Assembly: GCF_900184735.1 (NCBI RefSeq)
Contig: NZ_LT855399.1
Location: forward strand, 124,001-188,000
Direction: 5' to 3'
From: Paucisalibacillus globulus
GTDB lineage: Bacteria > Bacillota > Bacilli > Bacillales > Amphibacillaceae
Length of the DNA stretch: 64,000 nt
The notes under the pieces are model-generated. The model was not told the DNA's origin and ran no database searches. It worked only from the letters and a program-made list of their open reading frames with translations. How positions within the stretch are numbered: the first letter of the stretch is position 1; each line of letters starts with the position of its first letter. The translations under genes were made by a program, and so were the position numbers. Of the stretch, positions 8,919 to 16,963 are shown in pieces.

Positions 8919-8962
8919 GAAAAAGGAATAGAAACATTCTAACGGGTTCCGTTTATAGGTGC
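8919..8962 (+). repeat. Left copy of the 44-bp array-boundary inverted repeat
   Basis: By eye, 35 of 44 positions are identical to the reverse complement of 16920-16963. The block TCTAACGGGTTCC is fully conserved and forms a small hairpin (AACGG-GTT-CCGTT). The two copies face each other across the cassette array and its recombinase. Confidence 0.65.
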
Positions 8963-8982
8963 ACACAATATCATTCACATAC

Positions 8983-9034
8983 TAAATCGCATTGTGATTA
9001 AAATTAACATTCATAGTGCGATTTTATTGTTATT
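8983..9034. terminator. Terminator-like dyad
   Basis: AAATCGCA (8984-8991) pairs with TGCGATTT (9017-9024), followed by a T-rich stretch. It probably ends transcription entering from the MBL gene. Confidence 0.5.
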
Positions 9035-9236
9035 TTAAGATTCTTAATGAAATTGTATACTAAATTCACACTCCCATTTACATGGTCTGAAATAGATATT
9101 GTAGGGTATGTCAATCATCGTGTGGAAAGTTCGCGAATTGGGTTGTGAATTTAAATAATACATTACTTTTAGAATCCTTCACTAAATTTGTTTGAATAGT
9201 ATGATAAAATAAATAAAGATATTGTGAAAAGATGTA

Positions 9237-9264
9237 CTTAAAGTAACTGGGCAGGTTAGTTCAA
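9237..9264 (+). repeat. Cassette repeat R1, type B
   Basis: CTTAAAGTAACTGGGCAGG followed by TTAGTTCAA. Outer dyad arms surround a GGGCAG centre. It is the leftmost clear repeat of the array. Confidence 0.75.
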
Positions 9265-9275
9265 ATTCTGTTTTA

Positions 9276-9307
9276 TATAAATAAAAGACGGTGAAAACGC
9301 ACCGTCT
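9276..9307 (-). terminator. Terminator of the reverse-oriented cassette gene
   Basis: AGACGGTG (9286-9293) pairs perfectly with CACCGTCT (9300-9307). On the minus strand it is followed by TTTTATTT, just after the gene's stop. Confidence 0.75.
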
Positions 9308-9315
9308 ATAATTAG

Positions 9316-9522
9316 CTATTTATTTTGTGTTAATTCTTTGTAATAAAGGTAATCGACTTTATGCTTGGTAGCCATTAACTGTGAAGCCAAAACCGCCGTA
9401 TAAACAGTGGTTAGTACAATTGCTCCAACACCAAGACCTGAAAGGTTTATCTTATTATTAGATGTACTCATTCCATTATTGCTTGTGTTCATTCCATTAT
9501 TACTTGTAGGTGCTTCTTCCAT
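9316..9522 (-). CDS. Small single-pass membrane protein with TSNNGM repeats
   Basis: 68 residues starting at MEEAPTSNNG. This start is chosen because a GAGGGGGT ribosome site precedes it, whereas the longer frame to 9627 has none. The N-terminus has three short tandem repeats of TSNNGM/K, encoded by near-identical DNA. One membrane helix (GVGAIVLTTVYTAVLASQL) follows and then a charged tail. Function unknown. It is the only array gene besides the recombinase on the minus strand. Confidence 0.65.
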   Translation of the reverse strand: MEEAPTSNNGMNTSNNGMSTSNNKINLSGLGVGAIVLTTVYTAVLASQLMATKHKVDYLYYKELTQNK

Positions 9523-9590
9523 TTTGTTGACCCCCTCATTTGTTATAGGGGTATTATTTGTAACGGCATTTAAACTTATACGCAAAAAAT

Positions 9591-9607
9591 AACAGGCAGG
9601 TTCTAAA
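9591..9607 (+). repeat. Degenerate type B repeat remnant
   Basis: AACAGGCAGGTTCTAAA keeps the GGCAGGTT core of type B but has lost the left arm. It lies 25 bp before a good type A copy. Confidence 0.35.
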
Positions 9608-9632
9608 AACTTTAAACTTGTGAACAAATGTA

Positions 9633-9659
9633 CTTAAACTAATGGGTGCAAGAGTTAAA
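9633..9659 (+). repeat. Cassette repeat R2, type A
   Basis: CTTAAACTAATGGGTGCAAG then AGTTAAA. The centre is GGGTGC, with complementary arms AACT/AGTT. Confidence 0.8.
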
Positions 9660-9710
9660 TTAATAATTGTTATTTTATAGTTCTTTTATAAACAATCAGG
9701 GGGGATTGAG

Positions 9711-10235
9711 ATGGAAATAAGGCAATATAATCCCAAAGATGAAATTGGTTGGGTGCGATGTAGAGTTCTTTCATTTTTGGATACTGCGTATTTTGATAAT
9801 GTTTTAAACAAAAAGGAAGATTATCAGAATCCCGCAATTGAATTGGTAGCAGTAGAGGAAGGACAAATTGTAGGTCTGCTGGATATTGAATATGATAATA
9901 GTGAAAAAGCAATATGTACAAAAGGTGAGGGACTTGGTGGTATGATCTGGCATATTGCAATACATCCCGATTATCAAAGAAGGGGTATCGGAACAAAGCT
10001 ATTAGAAAAAGCAGAAAAGATTGCCAAAGAAAAGGGCTTAGACTACCTTGAAGCGTGGACCAGAGATGATGAATGGGTTAACGAGTGGTATAAAAAGAAT
10101 GGATTTGCCAAAGTTTACTCCTATTTACATCTGTTTCTTGAAGGTAAGGAAGTTGAAGATGTAGTGAGAGTAGACAAACCTAATTTTAAGGTTATGCAGG
10201 CTTTTATTCATTATTCTGGAGATGAAAAAAGATAA
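9711..10235 (+). CDS. GNAT family N-acetyltransferase (cassette gene)
   Basis: 174 residues. Acetyl-CoA-binding motif A is clear: IAIHPDYQRRGIGTKLLEKA at about residues 83-102, with the QRRGIG pyrophosphate loop. The usual C-terminal WYKKNGF strand-turn follows. The acceptor substrate cannot be predicted. A very strong CAGGGGGGATTGAG ribosome site precedes the ATG. The gene sits between two type A repeats without a type B in front. Confidence 0.88.
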   Translation: MEIRQYNPKDEIGWVRCRVLSFLDTAYFDNVLNKKEDYQNPAIELVAVEEGQIVGLLDIEYDNSEKAICTKGEGLGGMIWHIAIHPDYQRRGIGTKLLEKAEKIAKEKGLDYLEAWTRDDEWVNEWYKKNGFAKVYSYLHLFLEGKEVEDVVRVDKPNFKVMQAFIHYSGDEKR

Positions 10236-10300
10236 GGTCAAAACTAAATATAATAGGGTTCACGAATGTAATTGTTATGAAAAAAATCTCAAATAACTTT

Positions 10301-10328
10301 CTTCAACTATAGGGTGCAAGAGTTGAAA
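10301..10328 (+). repeat. Cassette repeat R3, type A
   Basis: CTTCAACTATAGGGTGCAAG then AGTTGAAA. The arms TTCAACT and AGTTGAA are perfectly complementary over 7 bp. The C-G pair here corresponds to A-T pairs in other copies. Confidence 0.8.
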
Positions 10329-10365
10329 AGAGCAACGCTGTTATAATCTGCGTTGCTCTTTAATA
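10328..10365. terminator. Bidirectional terminator between GNAT and recombinase
   Basis: AAGAGCAACGC pairs perfectly over 11 bp with GCGTTGCTCTT and is flanked by A and T runs. It directly abuts repeat R3 and closes both convergent genes. Confidence 0.85.
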
Positions 10366-10367
10366 TT

Positions 10368-11207
10368 TTAGAAATATTTTCTATAAAGCTCTTGTCGCAG
10401 TCTACCACTTAGTTCTGCGTATATCCTTGTAGTTTCACTTTTTTCGTGTCCTAATAGGCTTTGGATAACTTCTAATGGGGCACCGTTATTTAACAGGTGT
10501 GTTGCATAACTGTGCCTTAACTGGTGGGGGTGAATTGTTTTATTTATTCCTGCTCGTTTGGAAATACGTTTAATGATATACCTCATCTGAGCAATGCTCA
10601 TTCTGTGTGGAGAGCGTTCTGTCACAAATATTGCTGGATCGTTATCGTATCTGTTATCTAAATATTTCTTCAGCCAAATATCACAACGTATATTAAAGTA
10701 AACTTCTCGCTCCTTATCACCCTTACCACGAACAATGGCAGATTGGCTTCCCCAATTAATACTATTTCGGTCCAAGGTAACAATTTCTCCTATTCGACAA
10801 CCAGTAGAAAACATAAATTCAAATAAGGCTTTTTCCATTGGAGAAAAGCAAGCATCTCTAAGATATTCAATTTCTCTTTCAGTAAGGAATTTGGGAATCC
10901 TCTTTCCAACTCTCGGTTCCTTTATTTTACTAGCAGGATTTAACTCAATGAAACCCTCCTCGTGTAACCAACGAAATAGGGACCGTAAAAATCTAATACG
11001 ATGCGACAAACTTGAAGGCTTTAAGTTATTGCTCGATTCAGCTAAATAATCCTTCAATTGTAGGGTTGATATTTTACTTATGTCGATATTCCCTAAGTAA
11101 TCCATTAATAGCTTTGCTTGCAACCTATAAGCATTTAATGTGTGTACAGAAAAACCCTCAATTCTCTTATCTGCCTCATAACTCTTGGCGGCTTTTGATA
11201 ATAACAT
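10368..11207 (-). CDS. Tyrosine recombinase / integrase of the cassette array
   Basis: 279 residues: an N-terminal SAM-like core-binding domain (about 1-90) and a catalytic domain with the full set Arg138 (TGCRIGEI), Lys162 (GKGDKE), His228-x-x-Arg231 (HQLRHSYATHLL), His254 (LLGHEKSE) and nucleophile Tyr263. Lys-to-His spacing is 66 residues, as in XerC/XerD-type enzymes. IntI integrases have an extra insertion there, so this is not a classical integron integrase. It lies inside the array, transcribed against the cassettes. RBS GGGAGTGAG precedes the ATG. Presumed to cut and join at the flanking repeats (inference). Confidence 0.93.
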   Translation of the reverse strand: MLLSKAAKSYEADKRIEGFSVHTLNAYRLQAKLLMDYLGNIDISKISTLQLKDYLAESSNNLKPSSLSHRIRFLRSLFRWLHEEGFIELNPASKIKEPRVGKRIPKFLTEREIEYLRDACFSPMEKALFEFMFSTGCRIGEIVTLDRNSINWGSQSAIVRGKGDKEREVYFNIRCDIWLKKYLDNRYDNDPAIFVTERSPHRMSIAQMRYIIKRISKRAGINKTIHPHQLRHSYATHLLNNGAPLEVIQSLLGHEKSETTRIYAELSGRLRQELYRKYF

Positions 11208-11227
11208 AATTGCTCACTCCCAAAAAT

Positions 11228-11281
11228 ATTATTATCAACATCTTTACCATCAAGTTGAGTAAAATTAGTTTTGATAATATT
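11228..11281. promoter_or_regulatory. Inverted repeat upstream of the recombinase
   Basis: TATTATCAA near 11231-11240 is complementary to TTGATAATA near 11271-11280, about 30 bp apart, in the promoter region of the recombinase. It is a candidate operator or recombinase core site. Confidence 0.35.
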
Positions 11282-11325
11282 CTGATGAATTGAATGGAAT
11301 TTAATGTTAGAATTAAGATAGGTTA

Positions 11326-11352
11326 TTCAACTAAAGGGGCAGAATCCTTGAA
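11326..11352 (+). repeat. Cassette repeat R4, type B
   Basis: TTCAACTAAAGGGGCAGAAT then CCTTGAA. The outer TTCAA/TTGAA arms are complementary while the inner arm is degenerate. Confidence 0.75.
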
Positions 11353-11410
11353 GAAGGAGTATTTATTTGTTCAAAGAGTTTATTTGAAGAAATTATTTGG
11401 GGGTGCTTTT

Positions 11411-11779
11411 TTGAAAAGGGTATTAATAATAATTTTACTTGTTGTGATTTTGGGAGCTTGTAGTCAGCAAGAGAATGATACCTCTGGAGAAAGAGACGAA
11501 GGCATCATTGTTGATATAAAGAAGGAGACCTCTGATGAGAATTACTACCTCATATTAACTTTACCAAGTGTAGAAGGCATTAACATTTCAGATAAAACAA
11601 GAGATGAATTGATTGAATTAGCAGTAGAAAATAATGGTGCTTTTTATAGAGTTACCCAAGAAAAGTACGAAGAATGGAACTTAGAAATAGGTCAACGAAT
11701 CATCGGTTACTATAGTGATGTTGGAGAATCCCAACCCCCTGTATTGTTTACCAATAAAATAGAGGTATTTTCACAATAG
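11411..11779 (+). CDS. DUF3221-like lipoprotein (cassette gene)
   Basis: 122 residues from a TTG start with GGGGGTG in front. This start places a standard lipoprotein signal (KRVLIIILLVVILGAC) at the N-terminus. The longer frame from 11294 would read through repeat R4. The rest (GIIVDIKKE..., IGQRIIGYYSDVGES...) resembles YobA/DUF3221 proteins, small secreted beta-rich lipoproteins of unknown role in Bacillus. Bounded by repeats R4 and R5. Confidence 0.7.
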   Translation: MKRVLIIILLVVILGACSQQENDTSGERDEGIIVDIKKETSDENYYLILTLPSVEGINISDKTRDELIELAVENNGAFYRVTQEKYEEWNLEIGQRIIGYYSDVGESQPPVLFTNKIEVFSQ

Positions 11780-11792
11780 TTATGATGGCTTT

Positions 11793-11819
11793 ATTAAACA
11801 AACGGGTGCATTAGTTAAA
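11793..11819 (+). repeat. Cassette repeat R5, type A
   Basis: ATTAAACAAACGGGTGCATT then AGTTAAA. It is followed directly by the AAAGGTGA ribosome site of the next gene, with no terminator between. Confidence 0.8.
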
Positions 11820-11840
11820 AATAAAAAAGGTGATCTAATA

Positions 11841-12308
11841 GTGAATATACAAGTCAAACTGAAAGATATAATTGAAGAAATGGAAATGCAATTTGAAGAG
11901 TCACTTTCATTATTAAATATGAAAACGGGTGAAATAGTGTTAGTAACATCGGAGGACTTGAGAGCTGCTGAAGACGAAAAACCATTTGAACATTTACCTG
12001 AATGGGAACAAGAAAATAGAAAGATTGCAATTGATGTGGTTGAAAACTTTGAAAATTATATAGAGTTACCTACTAAATATGAAGTGAATGAATATGAAAT
12101 AATGGAAAACTTTTGCTCGACTGTAAGTGATCAACAGAAGCAAGAATCCTTATTAAGGGCAATCAAGGGAAAGGGTGCCTTTAGAAGATTTAAGGACAAA
12201 ATAATTGATTTTGAAATTGAAGAACAATGGTATACATACCGTGACGAGAGTTTTAAACAAATTGCGATTGAATGGTGTCAGGAAAATAAAATAAACTTTT
12301 TTGAATAG
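11841..12308 (+). CDS. UPF0158 family protein (cassette gene)
   Basis: 155 residues, GTG start with AAAGGTGAT in front. Hallmarks of UPF0158 (PF03682) are GAFRRFKDKI, EQWYTYRDESFKQIAIEWC and the DLRAAED region. An acidic, cytoplasmic protein of unknown function, often found in mobile or accessory DNA. Base use matches its neighbours. Confidence 0.8.
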   Translation: MNIQVKLKDIIEEMEMQFEESLSLLNMKTGEIVLVTSEDLRAAEDEKPFEHLPEWEQENRKIAIDVVENFENYIELPTKYEVNEYEIMENFCSTVSDQQKQESLLRAIKGKGAFRRFKDKIIDFEIEEQWYTYRDESFKQIAIEWCQENKINFFE

Positions 12309-12354
12309 AGATGACAAGGGGTGATTATTGAACCAAATTGTAACCCCCTTTTCT
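12309..12354 (+). terminator. Degenerate type A repeat fused to a terminator
   Basis: GACAAGGGGTGATTATTGAA looks like a decayed type A core. Its AAGGGGT pairs with AACCCCCTT downstream, followed by TTCTT. Confidence 0.5.
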
Positions 12355-12355
12355 T

Positions 12356-12383
12356 ATTAAAGTAAAGGGGCAGGTTTGTTTAA
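12356..12383 (+). repeat. Cassette repeat R6, type B
   Basis: ATTAAAGTAAAGGGGCAGGT then TTGTTTAA. The TTAAA/TTTAA outer arms keep pairing although the bases differ from R4, a compensatory change. Confidence 0.78.
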
Positions 12384-12449
12384 GAAGGATTATCTAATAT
12401 TTAGAAGGTAATAAGGGCAAATTTAAAAAAAGAATGTAAGAGGTGTAAT

Positions 12450-12902
12450 ATGAAACAATTTGTACTTGTGATGTTTACTGTCTCTTTTTTAGTAATTTGT
12501 CCTACATATTCAAATGCAATAACAACGCCTTGTAGTATGGTTTTAAACCCAATTGATAAAGAATTGAAAAACGCAAGGGGGGTAGCTTTGGTTTATAAAG
12601 TTCAGTTACGTCCACCAAGTTTTGAAAGAACAAATATAAGTATTCTTGGGGTCCATCTTCCTGAACCATCATCCTATGGAAATTACGATAGCTACGAAGG
12701 CTTTGCATACATACCAGAAGAAATTAGTTGGCGTTTCAAGCTATACCCATCGCCAGAACAAGATAGTCCAACTTGGGCTGGAAGGTTTGATGAAATTACA
12801 GCGAAAATTGAGAATGTAGAAGTTCAGCTACGTCTATCTAATTCAAAAACAGAAAAATTAGGACCCAGTATATTAGAAAGTAACGTCAAATATTGTAAGT
12901 AG
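12450..12902 (+). CDS. Secreted protein of unknown function (cassette gene)
   Basis: 150 residues with a signal peptide (residues 1-23, ending YSNA). The mature part has only two cysteines, one near each end (PCSM and KYCK), which could form a disulfide. It is otherwise beta-rich with several tryptophans and prolines. No family is recognised. RBS AGAGGTG precedes the ATG. Bounded by R6 (type B) upstream and R7 (type A plus terminator) downstream. Confidence 0.6.
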   Translation: MKQFVLVMFTVSFLVICPTYSNAITTPCSMVLNPIDKELKNARGVALVYKVQLRPPSFERTNISILGVHLPEPSSYGNYDSYEGFAYIPEEISWRFKLYPSPEQDSPTWAGRFDEITAKIENVEVQLRLSNSKTEKLGPSILESNVKYCK

Positions 12903-12904
12903 AT

Positions 12905-12931
12905 ATTGAGTTAACGGGTGCGATTGTTTAA
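12905..12931 (+). repeat. Cassette repeat R7, type A
   Basis: ATTGAGTTAACGGGTGCGAT then TGTTTAA. Its right arm also forms the left side of the terminator. Confidence 0.75.
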
Positions 12932-12950
12932 TGGGAACAGTCGCTTTTTT
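12920..12950 (+). terminator. Terminator built on the type A repeat
   Basis: GCGATTGTT pairs with AACAGTCGC (one G-U) and is followed by six T. Confidence 0.8.
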
Positions 12951-13019
12951 ACTTAATTGAACATAAAATAATATCTACTCACTGTAATGTTACGATAATT
13001 ATCTATAGGGAGGTCTAAA

Positions 13020-13511
13020 ATGAAAAGAGTAGGTAAATTTGTTTTAAGGATAAGTTTTGTATTCTATTTATTAGCACTGATAGTTTTATTATTCTTAGGT
13101 TCAAGAGGAGATATGATGGCAGGAATGTCATTAATTGAATATGTTAAAAGCTCTTCAAATTTAGTTCCATTTAAAACGATAAGTACATATATTAAGGCAA
13201 TTTTTGACGGTAGTATGAATATAGACATACCAATTAAAAACCTGTTTGGAAATGCTTTTATGTTTTTACCAATGGGCATCTACCTGCCTTCCTTTTTAAG
13301 AAAAGTAAACAAATTAAGTGTATTTGCATTTGCAATGGTTATATTGTTATTCGTTATTGAGGTAATACAAATAGTTACAAGAAGAGGAAGTTTTGATGTT
13401 GATGACTTCATTCTTAATATGTTTGGAGCTTTGATTGGTTTTTCAATTTGGAAGATGAATTCTATTCAAAAATTGATAAATAGAACTTCATTTCAATCTA
13501 ATAGTTTGTGA
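13020..13511 (+). CDS. VanZ-like family membrane protein (cassette gene)
   Basis: 163 residues with four membrane helices. The VanZ-family hallmarks are all present: NLVPFKTI, NLFGNAFMFLPMGIYLP, EVIQIVTRRGSFDVDDFILNMFG (read as separate blocks). VanZ itself gives low-level teicoplanin resistance, but most homologues have no known role. RBS GGGAGGT. Bounded by R7 and R8. Confidence 0.85.
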   Translation: MKRVGKFVLRISFVFYLLALIVLLFLGSRGDMMAGMSLIEYVKSSSNLVPFKTISTYIKAIFDGSMNIDIPIKNLFGNAFMFLPMGIYLPSFLRKVNKLSVFAFAMVILLFVIEVIQIVTRRGSFDVDDFILNMFGALIGFSIWKMNSIQKLINRTSFQSNSL

Positions 13512-13520
13512 AGAAATGTT

Positions 13521-13548
13521 CTTAAACTAAAGGGTGCAATACTTAAAC
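13521..13548 (+). repeat. Cassette repeat R8, type A
   Basis: CTTAAACTAAAGGGTGCAAT then ACTTAAAC, 10 bp after the VanZ-like stop codon. Confidence 0.8.
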
Positions 13549-13551
13549 AAT

Positions 13552-13589
13552 AGGGATCATCATTAATGATAATTCCTGTTTATTTTTTT
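13552..13589 (+). terminator. Terminator following R8
   Basis: AGGGATCATCATT pairs with AATGATAATTCCT with small interruptions. A T-rich tract leads into repeat R9. Confidence 0.65.
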
Positions 13590-13590
13590 G

Positions 13591-13618
13591 CTTTACTAAC
13601 GGGGCAGTTTTGAAGAAG
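13591..13618 (+). repeat. Cassette repeat R9, type B
   Basis: CTTTACTAACGGGGCAGTTT then TGAAGAAG. Confidence 0.78.
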
Positions 13619-13720
13619 CACCAATGAACTATTTGTACTTCTGTTTGGAAAGTTTATCAAGAAGTGGAACATAAACTTCTTTCAACCGTATCAAATTATA
13701 ATGCAGAAGGAGTGAAAGGC

Positions 13721-14092
13721 TTGAGGAAAATATTTGTATTAGTATTTTTGTTAGTTTTAATTTTATCGGCTTGTAATTCATCAAAATTGAGTTTTAGTGA
13801 AATTGAAAATGTACCTAATAATGTGCAAGACAAAGTTGATTCCAATTTAAAACTTCAATCAATCACTGATGGTGGGAAAGGATATTATATTGTTTTTCAT
13901 TCAAGTGGAGATGTAGAAACTGATTTAGAAACACAAGGAGATACTGTAACAATAAAGATTAATGTAACCAATCTGCAAGATGATGTTTTAAAGCAAAATA
14001 CATACTATTTAACGACAGGACCAGAACCCAATAAAATAGATGTTCTGGTAAATGGTGAATCAATACCTTTTGATAACGTAACAATTCAATAA
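13721..14092 (+). CDS. Putative lipoprotein (cassette gene)
   Basis: 123 residues from a TTG start placed eight bases after AGAAGGAG. This start yields a lipoprotein signal ending ILSAC, whereas upstream codons have no ribosome site. The mature part (about 105 residues) alternates beta strands and has no family I recognise. Bounded by type B repeats on both sides. Its stop codon lies inside R10. Confidence 0.65.
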   Translation: MRKIFVLVFLLVLILSACNSSKLSFSEIENVPNNVQDKVDSNLKLQSITDGGKGYYIVFHSSGDVETDLETQGDTVTIKINVTNLQDDVLKQNTYYLTTGPEPNKIDVLVNGESIPFDNVTIQ

Positions 14093-14121
14093 GCAACGGG
14101 GCAATTCTCTACTAAGTTGAA
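14085..14121 (+). repeat. Cassette repeat R10, type B, expanded
   Basis: TTCAATAAGCAACGGGGCAA then a loosened right arm ending AAGTTGAA. It overlaps the stop codon of the preceding lipoprotein gene. Confidence 0.55.
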
Positions 14122-14153
14122 CTTAATATAATTTAAAAACAAAGGGAAGCCTT

Positions 14154-14181
14154 ATTAAGCTAACGGGTGCAATAGTTAAAC
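14154..14181 (+). repeat. Cassette repeat R11, type A
   Basis: ATTAAGCTAACGGGTGCAAT then AGTTAAAC. Only 32 bp separate it from R10, with no reading frame between. Confidence 0.82.
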
Positions 14182-14182
14182 A

Positions 14183-14209
14183 AGGTGATCCAAATGGTAT
14201 CGCTTTTTT
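14183..14209 (+). terminator. Terminator following R11
   Basis: GTGATCC pairs with GGTATCGC (one bulge), followed by six T. The same GTGAT/ATCGC pairing recurs after R15. Confidence 0.7.
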
Positions 14210-14265
14210 CTTATGATTAAAATATCGTTTTTATTTTTGGAATCTAATGTTGGTGTTTAGATGAA

Positions 14266-14290
14266 AGTTATTATAGGCAGGTTAGTGGAA
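14266..14290 (+). repeat. Cassette repeat R12, degenerate type B
   Basis: AGTTATTATAGGCAGGTTAG then TGGAA keeps the GGCAGGTTAGT core. Confidence 0.5.
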
Positions 14291-14366
14291 GAAGAGCAGT
14301 TATTTTTACAAAAAAATGAACTTGTAATTATCATATTAAAATCAAGAATCTGACGGAGGGAATGAA

Positions 14367-15077
14367 GTGAGTAACAGTACGAGAGAGATTTATAATAAGT
14401 TAGCCTCTACATATCAAAACGATGTTGATAAGGGGAGTCCTTATAACAGTTATTATGAACGCCCAGCCATGATGGAGGCTTTGCCTTCTCAACTATCTGG
14501 TAAAAAGGTACTTGACGCTGGTTGTTCGGCTGGGTGGTATTCTTCCCAATTATTGCAACAAGGAGCGAAAGTGACTGGTGTAGATCTAAGTCCTGAAATG
14601 GTGAGAGTAGCGAATCAACGTTTGGGGGAGAAGGTGACATTCCTTTGTCACGACCTTCAAGAACGCCTTCCGTTTAAAGACGACTCCTTCGATGTGATTT
14701 TAAGCTCACTTACGCTTCATTATCTAAAGGATTGGACTTACACATTTCAGGAATTCAACCGCATTCTAAAAGCAGGCGGAACCTTTTTATTTTCGGTTCA
14801 TCACCCATTTATGGATTATACAAGATTTGATTGTGAGGATTACTTTAAAACCCAATTATTATCAGAAACCTGGAACAAACCTAATATTACAATTGATGTG
14901 AGTTTTTACAGAAGGCCCCTGCAAAGCATTGTAAATGAAACTACCCAATTTTTCAATCTCGATCAGTTGATTGAACCCAAACCGATAGAGAAGATGAAAA
15001 CTGAAAAAGAAGATTCTTATTACTATCTCATGACAAAACCTCATTTTCTTATAGTGAAAGCTGCGTCAAAAAAGTAA
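14367..15077 (+). CDS. Class I SAM-dependent methyltransferase (cassette gene)
   Basis: 236 residues from a GTG start with GGAGGG in front. SAM-binding motif I is [12 protein letters not shown] (about residues 48-59), motif [13 protein letters not shown], and the post-I block [14 protein letters not shown]. It belongs to the broad Methyltransf_11/UbiE-like group, so the substrate is open. It sits between R12 (B) and R13 (A). Confidence 0.88.
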
Positions 15078-15102
15078 TGAAAATCTATTTTGGATTTAGT
15101 AT

Positions 15103-15129
15103 AACTATTCAAAGGGTGAATTAGTTTAA
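15103..15129 (+). repeat. Cassette repeat R13, degenerate type A
   Basis: AACTATTCAAAGGGTGAATT then AGTTTAA, with the central C lost from GGGTGC. Confidence 0.6.
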
Positions 15130-15144
15130 TATAATCAACTGCAT

Positions 15145-15172
15145 ACTATACTAATGGGGCAGTTTAGTTGAA
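15145..15172 (+). repeat. Cassette repeat R14, type B
   Basis: ACTATACTAATGGGGCAGTT then TAGTTGAA, 15 bp after R13. Confidence 0.78.
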
Positions 15173-15230
15173 TAAGAAATCACAAAAGTAATGAAAATTT
15201 ACTTTAAAATAAGATTAAACGGGGGGTTAT

Positions 15231-15710
15231 ATGCGAAAAGTTTATCAAGATAGAACAGCATTACCTGGAGCTATGATTGTTAATTTAGAAGATACTGAGA
15301 TTATATCAGCAGGAACAACCATTTATTCAATGGGTGTTCATGATAGAAATGAGGAATATCAAAGATACGCTAACTATTATGATATTCAATTTATATTTGA
15401 CGATAATATTCCACGTATAGCGTTTTTTACGGTTCCACATGTTGATATTATGGCACAAGATAGTAAAGGTGGATTTATCGGAACTGTTGACCACCAATGT
15501 GACCTAGAAAGTAATGCACCAATTTGTTATATCAATAAGGAGTTGGAGAGCTTCAAAATTTCTGAAAACGGAAAAGATTTTCTGAGCAACGTTGAATCAT
15601 GGCAAGAGAACATGAAACCATATGATAAAATTACCGTTTATCGTTCGAAAGCAGATGCAGAAACGGAACTAGAATTTATCGATTTGTCTGATATTCTTCC
15701 ATTATTATAA
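15231..15710 (+). CDS. Hypothetical cytoplasmic protein (cassette gene)
   Basis: 159 residues, ATG start with GGGGGGTT. No signal peptide or membrane segment. The central part (IQFIFDDNIPRIAFFTVPHVDIMA) looks beta-rich, and the C-terminus is acidic. No family is recognised. Bounded by R14 (B) and R15 (A) with a terminator. Confidence 0.65.
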   Translation: MRKVYQDRTALPGAMIVNLEDTEIISAGTTIYSMGVHDRNEEYQRYANYYDIQFIFDDNIPRIAFFTVPHVDIMAQDSKGGFIGTVDHQCDLESNAPICYINKELESFKISENGKDFLSNVESWQENMKPYDKITVYRSKADAETELEFIDLSDILPLL

Positions 15711-15716
15711 AATCTT

Positions 15717-15743
15717 CCTGAACTAACAGGTGCCATTGTGAAA
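15717..15743 (+). repeat. Cassette repeat R15, type A
   Basis: CCTGAACTAACAGGTGCCAT then TGTGAAA, 7 bp after the preceding stop codon. Confidence 0.7.
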
Positions 15744-15745
15744 GA

Positions 15746-15774
15746 AGGTGATTATTTGATTGATCGCTTTTTTT
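15746..15774 (+). terminator. Terminator following R15
   Basis: GTGAT pairs with ATCGC across a short A/T loop, followed by seven T. Confidence 0.65.
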
Positions 15775-15853
15775 ATAGGAAAATTAAAATAATGTTTTTG
15801 GAATATTATGTTAGCACTGGGATATAGATATTGGGCTATCGGGGGGATGTTGT

Positions 15854-16414
15854 TTGCAAATACAGAGTTTCTCATTGGTTTGGTCAATTATTATATACGG
15901 TAGTATAGTCCTTTTAATCTTCCTTTTCCCAAGGTCTCGCATATTTATTAATAGGGCTTTCGACTTCAGCGTTCTAAAAAAACCTCAAACCTATCTCATA
16001 ATGTTTATCGCATTAATGACTATTTTCATTGCGAATTTAATCATCTTTAATCGTACATTAACCTCTATGTTTGATTTTTGGACAAGGGAATATTCCTATT
16101 CCTATACATCTTTGTTGGATAATATCGAGTTATTCCAATTTCTCATTTATACCGTAATAATAGCTCCCATTATGGAGGAAGTGTTGTTTAGAATACCAAT
16201 ATCTATTTGGATGAATAGATTAACTTACTTTATTTTAGCACTATTAATCTCATCCATTTTATTTGGATTTATACATCCAGAATATCCGTTATTTGGTTTT
16301 GTATTGGGCGTTTCATTTGGTTTTACATACAAACTATCAAGGTCAATAGTTCCCGCAATACTTATTCATGTTATTTGGAATATATTTTCACTATTTTATT
16401 TTAACTACATTTAG
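15854..16414 (+). CDS. CPBP family intramembrane metalloprotease (cassette gene)
   Basis: 186 residues from a TTG start with GGGGGGAT in front. An ATG seven bases upstream is out of frame. About six membrane helices. All three CPBP (Abi/CAAX) motifs are visible: EEVLFR, FGFIH and HVIWN. Homologues include CAAX-like proteases and bacteriocin self-immunity proteins. The role here is open. Confidence 0.88.
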   Translation: MQIQSFSLVWSIIIYGSIVLLIFLFPRSRIFINRAFDFSVLKKPQTYLIMFIALMTIFIANLIIFNRTLTSMFDFWTREYSYSYTSLLDNIELFQFLIYTVIIAPIMEEVLFRIPISIWMNRLTYFILALLISSILFGFIHPEYPLFGFVLGVSFGFTYKLSRSIVPAILIHVIWNIFSLFYFNYI

Positions 16415-16422
16415 CTTCATTT

Positions 16423-16452
16423 GTTCTTAATTTATAGGATGTGTTACTTCAA
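16423..16452 (+). repeat. Cassette repeat R16, degenerate type A
   Basis: GTTCTTAATTTATAGGATGT then GTTACTTCAA. The following AAGACGCATTCTTT can pair with it as a weak terminator. Confidence 0.45.
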
Positions 16453-16471
16453 TAAGGAAGACGCATTCTTT

Positions 16472-16499
16472 ATTCAACTATTGGGGCAGCTCAGTTCAA
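16472..16499 (+). repeat. Cassette repeat R17, type B
   Basis: ATTCAACTATTGGGGCAGCT then CAGTTCAA, directly before the AAGGAGGG ribosome site of the next gene. Confidence 0.78.
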
Positions 16500-16509
16500 C
16501 AAGGAGGGA

Positions 16510-16806
16510 TTGTTTTGGTTACCTAAGTGTTGGTCTTGTAACTATGCTTTTAAGTGGAGAGATTCGATGTTTTTTACAAGACGAAAGAAGTGTCCTAATT
16601 GTAATAAAATCCAACACATTACTAAAGAAAGTAATTGGAAAATAGGTGTCATAGGTGCTCCTTTGCCATTTGTTCCAATTATATTAAACATTCTCAGTGT
16701 ACCTTGGCTATGGATTTGCGTTATTTCTATTCCTTTAATAATGAATTATTTTATTATTTTACCTTACCAGTTAAGATTTGCGGATGAGGAACAACCATTA
16801 TTTTAA
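16510..16806 (+). CDS. Two-CxxC zinc-ribbon membrane protein, TIGR04104-like (cassette gene)
   Basis: 98 residues. CWSC and CPNC pairs (first cysteines at positions 7 and 28) form a presumed zinc ribbon and are followed by two membrane helices. This layout matches the small cxxc_20_cxxc family of Bacillaceae, function unknown. The start is a TTG only one or two bases after AAGGAGGGA, unusually close, but no other start keeps the first CxxC. Confidence 0.68.
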   Translation: MFWLPKCWSCNYAFKWRDSMFFTRRKKCPNCNKIQHITKESNWKIGVIGAPLPFVPIILNILSVPWLWICVISIPLIMNYFIILPYQLRFADEEQPLF

Positions 16807-16816
16807 ATTAAGGTTA

Positions 16817-16844
16817 TTTCACTATCGGGTGCGATTGTTCATTA
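16817..16844 (+). repeat. Cassette repeat R18, type A
   Basis: TTTCACTATCGGGTGCGATT then GTTCATTA. It is the rightmost clear array repeat. Confidence 0.72.
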
Positions 16845-16862
16845 AGGACAATCGCCTATTTT
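16831..16862 (+). terminator. Terminator built on R18
   Basis: GCGATTGT pairs perfectly with ACAATCGC and is followed by CTATTTTATTT. Confidence 0.8.
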
Positions 16863-16919
16863 ATTTATTATAGAAATATTGATTTTGATTTTGTGAATTA
16901 CGATGAGAATTAGCTCGAA

Positions 16920-16963
16920 GCACCTCATAATGGAACCCGTTAGAAACATTTTGTTCCTTTTTC
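16920..16963 (-). repeat. Right copy of the 44-bp array-boundary inverted repeat
   Basis: Reverse-complement partner of 8919-8962 (35 of 44 identical by eye). GGAACCCGTTAGA is invariant. It lies 58 bp after the last array terminator and before the ABC exporter's promoter. Confidence 0.65.

What the first reader, a model, noticed from the sequence alone, without database searches (positions are those of the whole stretch)
8919..16963. Integron-like gene-cassette array in a Bacillaceae genome
Seen: about ten small unrelated genes with mostly accessory-type functions are each delimited by copies of two related ~28-bp repeats. Order is constant: type B (centre GGGGCAG) before the gene, type A (centre GGGTGC) after it, usually followed by a terminator. 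A single tyrosine recombinase sits inside, on the opposite strand. Known: integrons have promoterless cassettes, attC sites and IntI. Here the sites are much shorter, cassettes carry terminators and probably promoters, and one gene is reversed. Inference: an integrase-driven cassette-capture system analogous to integrons but with different sites and enzyme. I do not know a described system of this form, but cannot search.
Basis: partly seen in the sequence, partly recalled or inferred. Interest (0 to 1): 0.92.

Follow-up and report, generated by a model that had tools for sequence, protein, structure and literature searches.

The report
Integron-like gene-cassette system of Bacilli
Many soil and marine relatives of Bacillus carry rows of interchangeable accessory genes, separated by short recombination sites and accompanied by a Xer-like recombinase, a system that seems to work like the integrons of other bacteria but is built from different parts.

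Summary
Fifteen sites (A: centre GGGTGC; B: centre GNNGCAG; shared inverted ~10-bp arms) punctuate 8940-16942 around one reversed XerC/D-like recombinase. In 78 loci with 27 genus labels (the best kept of 360 relatives) the same recombinase, 73-92% identical, is found; with the window and the second own locus they hold 1,202 sites against 42 in shuffled DNA. The same unit occurs beside different neighbours and similarity breaks at the sites: 124 of 264 ends lie at a site in both partners, 1.2 expected, inside the centre. Nine of nine congeners fetched lack the array here. The array is one insertion with ~27-bp inverted ends and an 8-of-9-bp direct repeat, placed in a terminator hairpin. It works like an integron but fails two defining tests: no IntI insertion, no sign of a folded attC. 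Against: the tie between sites and recombinase is loose genome by genome. Ten searches of an open-licence library found no description. That this enzyme does the recombining is inferred, not shown.

The parts
8931..8939 (.). left copy of the 9-bp target direct repeat (GAAACATTC)
   Evidence: read by eye; the right copy differs by one base
8940..8966 (+). left terminal inverted repeat of the element (TAACGGGTTCC...)
   Evidence: same motif at the ends of arrays in other genomes
8967..9237 (+). leader with hairpin and TGnTAAAAT promoter-like element reading into the array
   Evidence: alignment of 8 leaders of 241-319 bp (two of them near-identical) and one false one
9238..9264 (+). site B1 (centre TGGGCAG from 9248)
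   Evidence: score 27.7
9316..9627 (-). cassette ORF, small protein without family, reversed; unit shared with L043, L044, L045, L061, L073 at 87-97.5% DNA identity
9634..9659 (+). site A1, with extended left flank TTGTGAA...
9711..10235 (+). cassette gene, GNAT acetyltransferase
   Evidence: PF00583 4.2e-16
10302..10327 (+). site A2, left edge of the recombinase unit
10368..11207 (-). tyrosine recombinase, 279 aa; R138, K162/K165, H228, R231, H254, Y263
   Evidence: these residues in 86 or 87 of 87 relatives aligned
11326..11352 (+). site B2, right edge of the recombinase unit
11411..11779 (+). cassette gene, lipoprotein-like by eye (TTG start in frame; open frame from 11294); DUF3221 hit below its cut-off
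11794..11819 (+). site A3
11841..12308 (+). cassette gene, UPF0158
   Evidence: 2.5e-11
12357..12383 (+). site B3
   Evidence: score 38.0
12450..12902 (+). cassette gene, no family
12906..12931 (+). site A4
13020..13511 (+). cassette gene, VanZ-like membrane protein
   Evidence: 2.2e-24
13522..13547 (+). site A5, with extended left flank
13548..13590 (+). terminator-like linker between A5 and B4
   Evidence: sequence; linkers of this kind
13591..13617 (+). site B4 (weak)
   Evidence: score 16.2
13664..14092 (+). cassette gene, lipoprotein-like by eye, no family over its cut-off
14155..14180 (+). site A6
   Evidence: score 37.1
14367..15077 (+). cassette gene, SAM methyltransferase; degenerate B near 14276 and A near 15114 flank it
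15146..15172 (+). site B5
15231..15710 (+). cassette gene, no family; 86% DNA match in L109
15718..15743 (+). site A7
15854..16414 (+). cassette gene, CPBP intramembrane protease (Rce1-like)
   Evidence: 2.9e-16
16427..16452 (+). weak site A8 (centre GGATGT)
   Evidence: score 19.5
16473..16499 (+). site B6
16510..16806 (+). cassette gene, TIGR04104 putative zinc-finger protein
   Evidence: 65.6 bits, cut-off 45
16817..16842 (+). site A9, last site
16916..16942 (-). right terminal inverted repeat
16943..16951 (.). right copy of the 9-bp target direct repeat (GAAACATTT), inside the interrupted terminator
   Evidence: read by eye

Best explanation
This is a gene-cassette capture and shuffling platform of Bacilli that works like an integron but was built independently. 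A dedicated simple (XerC/D-like) tyrosine recombinase acts on ordinary double-stranded core sites: two inverted ~10-bp arms round a short asymmetric centre. Centres come in two classes, A (GGG|TGC) and B (GNN|GCAG). Each unit runs from the right half of one site to the left half of the next. B-headed units mostly carry a gene; A-headed units mostly start with a terminator and are a 40-60-bp linker, a gene, or the recombinase itself, reversed. Recombination in the site centres excises and inserts units, so genes move singly or in small groups between arrays, species and plasmids. The whole array is an element with ~27-bp inverted ends that inserted into a terminator hairpin. SHOWN by comparison: the sites, units in changed contexts, break points in the centre, arrays round the recombinase, the empty locus, the ends and (in part of the cases) the direct repeat. 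INFERRED: that this recombinase does it, circles as intermediates, pairing of like centres, the promoter of the leader, and how the whole element moves.
For: 1,202 sites in 80 sequences, 42 after shuffling. 264 similarity ends inside arrays, recombinase units left out: 124 at a site in both partners, random mean 1.2, highest of 200 draws 5. Identity across sites of one unit in changed context switches in the centre: a downstream unit inherits from +3 (B: +2 0.40, +3 0.94; A: +3 0.91 against 0.42 by chance), an upstream unit up to +2 at B and +5 at A. L056 shares B-gene-A-recombinase-B with L061 (98.8%) and L073 (98.5%), three genus labels, ends at B-type centres. Own C7 locus and L044: 6.25 kb 99.7% identical up to an A site, then different units. 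Nine congeners lack the 8.1 kb at this locus. Recombinase in an A-to-B slot in 41 of 72 copies; catalytic residues in 86-87 of 87. Other recombinase lineages go with other type-A centres on the same arms (GGGGGC in L203 and L204, GGGCGC in L200 and L210, GGGACAC in L205 and L206, read by eye). Direct repeats of 9 of 9 bases at L085, L096, L211. Sites round the recombinase on both plasmids opened.
Against: No activity, circle or expression was measured. No two strains of one species were compared. At genome level the tie is loose: 20 of 30 family genomes with the recombinase and 65 of 129 without it match the B pattern (Fisher p 0.15; mean matches 5.3 against 1.6, p 0.0075), so many arrays stand without a detected enzyme, or another recombinase serves them. 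Of the 51%-identity copies, L208, L209, L212 and L213 show 0-2 sites a strand, no array by this model. Two of seven end pairs lack the direct repeat (L071 5/9, C7 1/9). The right neighbour of a gene unit changes class in 9 of 30 unit families, so strict A-with-A, B-with-B pairing is not established. At A the left-hand switch is blurred (-9, -7 and -4 are also above chance). A 57-bp linker is short for excision by itself (inference).
Confidence: 0.85

Rival explanations
1. A true integron of unusual sequence: IntI-type integrase and single-strand-folded attC sites, where A-terminator-B is one attC (A arms pair with B arms, the centres form the unpaired spacer, the terminator is the apical loop).
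For: Reversed recombinase, promoter-like element in the leader, mostly one gene per unit, modal 57-61-bp A-B spacing; arms of A and B could pair. In 188 linkers four outer positions (k=3, 9, 10, 12) and one inner (k=5) pair a little more often than shuffled (z 2.0-3.0).
Against: The most variable arm positions do not covary (outer k=8, 11, 14: z +0.4, +0.4, -0.3; inner +0.2, -1.2, -2.4). The recombinase matches the IntI profile less well than the host's two Xer-like proteins and lacks most of profile positions 178-233. Units break at A and at B separately.
Confidence: 0.05
2. The sites are dif-like modules moved by the host's XerC/XerD (the pdif-module kind); the array recombinase is a passenger.
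For: Site size (26-27 bp), inverted arms and 6-7-bp centre resemble the dif layout given in PMC12907356 (passages read); arrays exist without a close recombinase.
Against: Both arms are the same motif, as for one enzyme; sites stand in one direction, not alternating; the type-A centre differs between recombinase lineages; the recombinase holds a fixed, reversed place in its own unit (52 of 53 scored units). A recalled B. subtilis dif sequence was not found in this genome within 3 mismatches, so a direct comparison with the host dif was not possible.
Confidence: 0.1
3. The repeats are regulatory or repetitive sequences (terminator-linked repeats) that serve as homology for RecA recombination; the arrays only look like cassettes.
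For: Many A-B linkers are terminator-like; similar repeats at gene ends can misalign.
Against: A 26-bp imperfect repeat is too short for efficient homologous recombination (established knowledge); breaks lie at fixed bases of the centre; in the own genome sites cluster; exchange crosses genera.
Confidence: 0.03
4. The main unit is a transposon with inverted ends, mobilised by a separate transposase; recombinase and sites serve only for resolving copies.
For: Inverted ends and direct repeats; a 788-bp end-to-end element without sites (L175, 8 of 9 bases repeated by eye).
Against: No transposase found inside the window's element, and no ORF beyond recombinase size in the smallest complete one (L211, 2.76 kb); units change independently of the ends; resolution sites would not flank each gene.
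Confidence: 0.07

Closest known systems
Integrons (class 1 and chromosomal; IntI, attI, attC)
   Same: Tyrosine recombinase encoded against the array, mostly one accessory gene per cassette, cassettes shared between species, arrays without a recombinase, a transposon-like carrier, group II introns at sites (the integron side of these parallels is recalled, apart from papers cited).
   Different: A simple XerC/D-like enzyme without the IntI insertion; two classes of short double-strand-type sites; no sign of a folded attC; the recombinase sits in its own A-B unit and recurs like a cassette; terminators in separate units.
pdif / dif modules of Acinetobacter (PMC12907356, passages read)
   Same: 26-28-bp double-strand sites with inverted arms and a 6-7-bp centre flank modules.
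   Different: There XerC and XerD bind unlike halves and sites occur as C/D and D/C; here like arms, one direction, two centre classes and a dedicated recombinase (its role inferred).
XerC/XerD/XerA recombinases
   Same: Closest solved relatives: XerD 1a0p 4e-36, XerA 5hxy 5e-25.
   Different: The family is a clade apart from the two host Xer-like proteins used (99/99 support, 41 rows, long-branch warning given) and the window's protein is below the curated cut-offs of XerC, XerD and XerA_Arch.
Recombinase-mediated cassette exchange with unlike sites (loxP/lox2272, FRT/F3; recalled)
   Same: Same arms, different spacers, directional slots.
   Different: Those pairs are laboratory constructs; here the two classes are natural. 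Incompatibility of A and B is not shown.

Membership tests
Integron | IntI-type integrase with the IntI-specific insertion in the catalytic domain | tested here: not met
   TIGR02249: 98 bits against a 265-bit cut-off; in the six-frame search the match is split at profile 177/234 with about 16 residues where the profile has 56, and the two host Xer-like proteins score higher. [quoted passage not shown]
Integron | attC sites recombined as folded single strands | tested here: not met
   No covariation of A and B arms at the most variable positions in 188 linkers; a few conserved positions have z 2-3; A and B break separately. Indirect: no biochemistry.
Integron | attI site and Pc promoter next to the integrase | tested here: inconclusive
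   B site on the start side in 46 of 72 copies; TGnTAnAAT in 4 of 41 recombinase-unit ends against 1.0 in shuffles; no function shown.
Integron | array of exchangeable, mostly single-gene cassettes | tested here: met
   of 657 units with an ORF 505 hold exactly one of 60 aa or more.
pdif module | sites alternate in orientation | tested here: not met
   1,202 sites on the array strand; 878 of 931 opposite-strand hits are the same near-palindromes.
pdif module | sites match the host dif | tested here: inconclusive
   host dif not found with a recalled B. subtilis sequence
pdif module | recombined by host XerC and XerD | not testable with these tools
   needs deletion strains
Simple tyrosine recombinases | core-binding plus catalytic domain, RKHRHY residues, no arm-binding domain | tested here: met
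   PF00589 plus N-terminal SAM-like PF02899 and PF14659 over their cut-offs, nothing else over its cut-off; residues in 86-87 of 87.
Transposon with inverted ends | terminal inverted repeats with a constant direct repeat | tested here: inconclusive
   Ends: yes. Seven candidate pairs: 9/9 at L085, L096, L211; 8/9 at the window and L175 (by eye); 5/9 at L071 and 1/9 at C7. Unpaired flanks: mean 2.7, maximum 6 of 9.
Transposon with inverted ends | own transposase | tested here: not met
   None among the window element's products; L211 ORFs judged by size only.

The most novel reading that the evidence does not exclude
Bacilli invented their own integron. One Xer-like recombinase serves two natural, mutually exclusive site classes, so that gene modules (B to A) and terminator or recombinase modules (A to B) are exchanged independently, a natural form of recombinase-mediated cassette exchange; and the same enzyme, or a helper in trans, inserts the whole platform into terminator hairpins with a 9-bp direct repeat, so that arrays travel between chromosomes and plasmids.
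Probability: 0.3. Interest if true: 0.97.

Novelty: categorically new. Interest (0 to 1): 0.92.

Why it matters
Integrons are the textbook route by which bacteria collect and reshuffle accessory genes, and the reasons for their rarity in Firmicutes have been called unclear (IntegronFinder 2.0, PMC9024848, passages read: one complete integron in the phylum, Limnochorda pilosa). A second, independently built solution in Bacilli would explain part of that gap, open a large pool of little-known accessory genes (76 Pfam families matched by 100 cassette proteins, the commonest in 4; these 100 are of 548 candidates), and give a simple double-strand recombinase with a choice of centres for engineering. 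It also makes testable whether cassette platforms evolve repeatedly from Xer-type enzymes.

Tried and rejected
attC-like folding of A-linker-B: attractive from the drawing, rejected for lack of covariation at the variable positions, with the weak exceptions told above. First typing of sites by two 36-column profiles put some six-base B centres (GGGCAG) into class A; replaced by a two-half model with a flexible gap. The break-point profile still rests on the first typing; pairs in unchanged context were dropped there (left A 7, left B 2, right A 8, right B 2). Strict pairing of like centres: tested by neighbour class, left open. Unit present/absent between otherwise equal arrays: 25 gap events listed, only L009/L044 followed. 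Search for an autonomous element with the same ends: 27 of 159 family genomes carry the end motif; ten stretches fetched and nine scanned for sites, ends and ORFs (L179, cut to 677 bases by a contig end, was left out); no transposase was sought by profile. Host dif by a recalled B. subtilis sequence: no match, no conclusion. Defence genes among 100 cassette proteins: 15 PADLOC families matched, each by 1 or 2 members, no clear enrichment tested. Literature: ten searches of open-licence PubMed Central papers found no description; subscription journals and preprints are not held, so a description there would have been missed.


Full report
1. What is in the window. The stretch 8940-16942 holds 15 copies of two related short sites, eleven small genes and one tyrosine recombinase on the opposite strand. 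The two site classes share inverted arms, TTnAACTAAn on the left and nTTAGTTnAA on the right, and differ in the centre: A has GGGTGC (6 bases), B has GNNGCAG (7 bases), with length variants. Gene products: GNAT acetyltransferase, UPF0158, VanZ-like, CPBP protease, SAM methyltransferase, a TIGR04104 zinc-finger protein, two lipoprotein-like by eye and three of no family.

2. More than chance. A profile from the window's own 9 A and 6 B copies found dense arrays in loci chosen only for their recombinase. After refinement, 80 sequences (window, own second locus, the 78 loci, which kept the best of 360 relatives; 1.40 Mb) hold 1,202 sites, 42 after shuffling; 931 hits on the other strand are mostly the near-palindromic sites themselves, 878 coinciding with one. 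Of the 78 loci 73 have 3 or more sites, 53 have 10 or more, maximum 46; the five with fewer are L091, L094, L097, L105, L114. The loci carry 27 genus labels, nearly all of Bacillaceae and Planococcaceae; the Chryseobacterium label and the two Paenibacillus labels look misassigned, judged from their near relatives.

3. The recombinase. 279 aa, catalytic plus N-terminal core-binding domain, closest solved relative XerD (4e-36), IntI4 far behind (4e-15). It falls below the curated cut-offs of XerC, XerD, XerA_Arch and IntI. Its relatives form one clade apart from the two host Xer-like proteins (99/99; the tool warned of long branches) and keep the catalytic residues in 86-87 of 87. In 41 of 72 copies it lies in an A-to-B slot, 54 bp from A and 80 bp from B at the median; slots shown are about 960-1,040 bp. 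This slot itself recurs: 49 copies fall in one family, many with changed neighbours. The recombinase behaves as a cassette too.

4. Units move, and break in the site centre. Similarity between loci ends at sites: 124 of 264 ends inside arrays, recombinase units left out, lie within 25 bp of a site in both partners, against 1.2 at random; 140 do not. Where the same unit stands in changed context, positional identity switches within the centre (first typing of sites): for a B site on the left, +1 and +2 are at chance (0.40, 0.40 against 0.49, 0.42) and +3 is 0.94 against 0.71 (24 pairs, 17 unit families); for B on the right, +1 and +2 are raised (0.70, 0.69 against 0.49, 0.44) and +3 is not (0.59 against 0.72; 88 pairs, 11 families); for A on the left +3 is 0.91 against 0.42 (130 pairs, 10 families), though -9, -7 and -4 are raised too; for A on the right +5 is 0.84 against 0.58 and +6 is 0.20 against 0.34 (55 pairs, 14 families). 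The variable NN of B follows the upstream side only in part, as expected of an overlap in which mismatches are tolerated (inference). Single cases: the window's first unit recurs in L043, L044, L045, L061, L073 (L061 and L073 share their context); L056 shares a 2.77-kb B-gene-A-recombinase-B block with L061 (98.8%) and L073 (98.5%); the own locus C7 and Gracilibacillus timonensis share 6.25 kb at 99.7% up to ...CTTAAAGTAAA and then carry different units.

5. Genes and terminators are separate units. Short A-to-B linkers (256; modal 57-61 bp) fold better than shuffles (mean z -2.3, 52% below -2) and 90 of 120 sampled of 253 have a T4 run near the end, 58 of 120 in shuffles. In most of the unit families displayed (22 of 35 shown, read by eye) gene units keep neither the upstream nor the downstream terminator. 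The class of the right neighbour can change (9 of 30 families; some of these rest on weak sites). I read this as recombination at every site; whether A can cross with B is open. A promoter-like TGnTAnAAT is enriched between B and the gene (30 against 9.1 in shuffles, in 29 of 275 units) and between A and the gene (10 against 3.8, 118 units), not inside genes (4 against 11.5); a two-box TTGAC-TAnnnT promoter is not enriched (4 against 2.6 after B). So some cassettes may bring a promoter.

6. Not a folded attC. If A-linker-B folded as one strand, A arms and B arms should covary at their variable positions. In 188 linkers the most variable positions do not (outer k=8, 11, 14 z +0.4, +0.4, -0.3; inner +0.2, -1.2, -2.4), while outer k=3, 9, 10, 12 and inner k=5 reach z 2.0-3.0 with small excesses (2 to 13 of 188). 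A comparable signal within B (k=1, 5, 7; z about 3) fits a double-strand palindromic site. I take folding as unlikely, not disproved.

7. The platform is an insertion. At this locus nine of nine congeners fetched (of ten others found; G099 was not fetched) have the same two neighbours about 25-1,480 bp apart against 8.1 kb in the window, and no site stands between them; four weak hits lie elsewhere in two of the nine stretches. In the two nearest relatives the place is a terminator hairpin, and the window's array interrupts it with GAAACATT(C/T) on both sides (read by eye). The ends are inverted repeats TAACGGGTTCnGTTnTGnnGTnCAAAA: 50 profile hits, weak ones included, against 4 in shuffles; 116-172 bp beyond the last site in ten of fourteen right ends; in 27 of 159 family genomes with no reversed-pattern match. 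Nine-base repeats are perfect at L085, L096 and L211, 8 of 9 at the window and L175, absent at L071 and C7. L211, 2.76 kb, is the smallest complete element with a recombinase that I saw, and the recombinase is its largest ORF. What moves the whole element is unknown.

8. Range. In the window's family 30 of 159 genomes have the recombinase at E 1e-60 and 85 of 159 match the B pattern, none the reversed pattern. The two sets overlap only loosely: 20 of 30 with, 65 of 129 without (p 0.15); match counts are higher with it (5.3 against 1.6, p 0.0075); among 19 genomes whose best copy is about 70% or more identical, a subset chosen afterwards, 18 match. Copies of about 65% identity show centres GGGGGC (L203, L204) or GGGCGC (L200, L210), and L205 and L206 (51-54%) GGGACAC, on the same arms; clear GCAG sites were seen in L203, L204, L205 and L207 and singly in L206, not in L200 or L210; L208, L209, L212 and L213 (51%) show no array by this model. 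Arrays without a close recombinase are thus common, as CALINs are for integrons. In the class 29 of 398 genomes sampled have it. It is on 7 plasmid records of 72,556 at E 1e-60, and no phage record exceeds 37% identity; two of the plasmids were opened and both hold sites round it.

9. Known or not. Ten searches of an open-licence library gave no such system. IntegronFinder 2.0 reports a single complete integron in Firmicutes (passages); the tyrosine-recombinase census gives dimer resolution, integron recombination and mobilisation of non-conjugative elements as the roles of simple recombinases (passages). The system works like an integron; by enzyme, and as far as tested by site, it is not one.

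Noticed in passing
L081, L089, L098, L117: Group II introns (RF02005, 157-160 bits) lie in these loci; in L081 and L117 the sequence after a B centre GCAG begins GTGTG like a group II intron, recalling the group IIC introns that target integron attC sites (recalled).
   Followed up: partly
L205, L206, L200, L203, L204, L210: Other recombinase lineages show the same arms with other type-A centres (GGGACAC; GGGGGC; GGGCGC), as if centre and enzyme co-diverge (by eye).
   Followed up: partly
window 9618-9659 and 13506-13547, and other A sites: 167 of 648 A sites (first typing) carry a conserved extra left flank TTTGTGAAgAAtTGTACTTAAACTAAC; role unknown, perhaps an accessory binding site.
   Followed up: no
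L226 and own contig C10, about 127-155 kb: A third cluster of sites in the window's genome, with no recombinase of this family on that contig.
   Followed up: no
L227, Sporosarcina psychrophila plasmid pSP10-266k: Array on a plasmid; among the annotated genes between its sites are merA, merR and a NUDIX gene.
   Followed up: no
L009 about 14587-15060: Short open frame like a fragment of an IS110-type transposase inside the own second array; named by eye from recall, not searched.
   Followed up: no
L175 101-888: 788-bp element with the same inverted ends and 8 of 9 bases of direct repeat, without a site or an ORF of 80 aa: a miniature form.
   Followed up: no
own contig C7, about 73.0-79.2 kb (L009/L010), against L044: 6.25 kb 99.7% identical between this genome and Gracilibacillus timonensis: recent transfer between genera; some of its genes look metal-related by eye, not searched.
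   Followed up: partly
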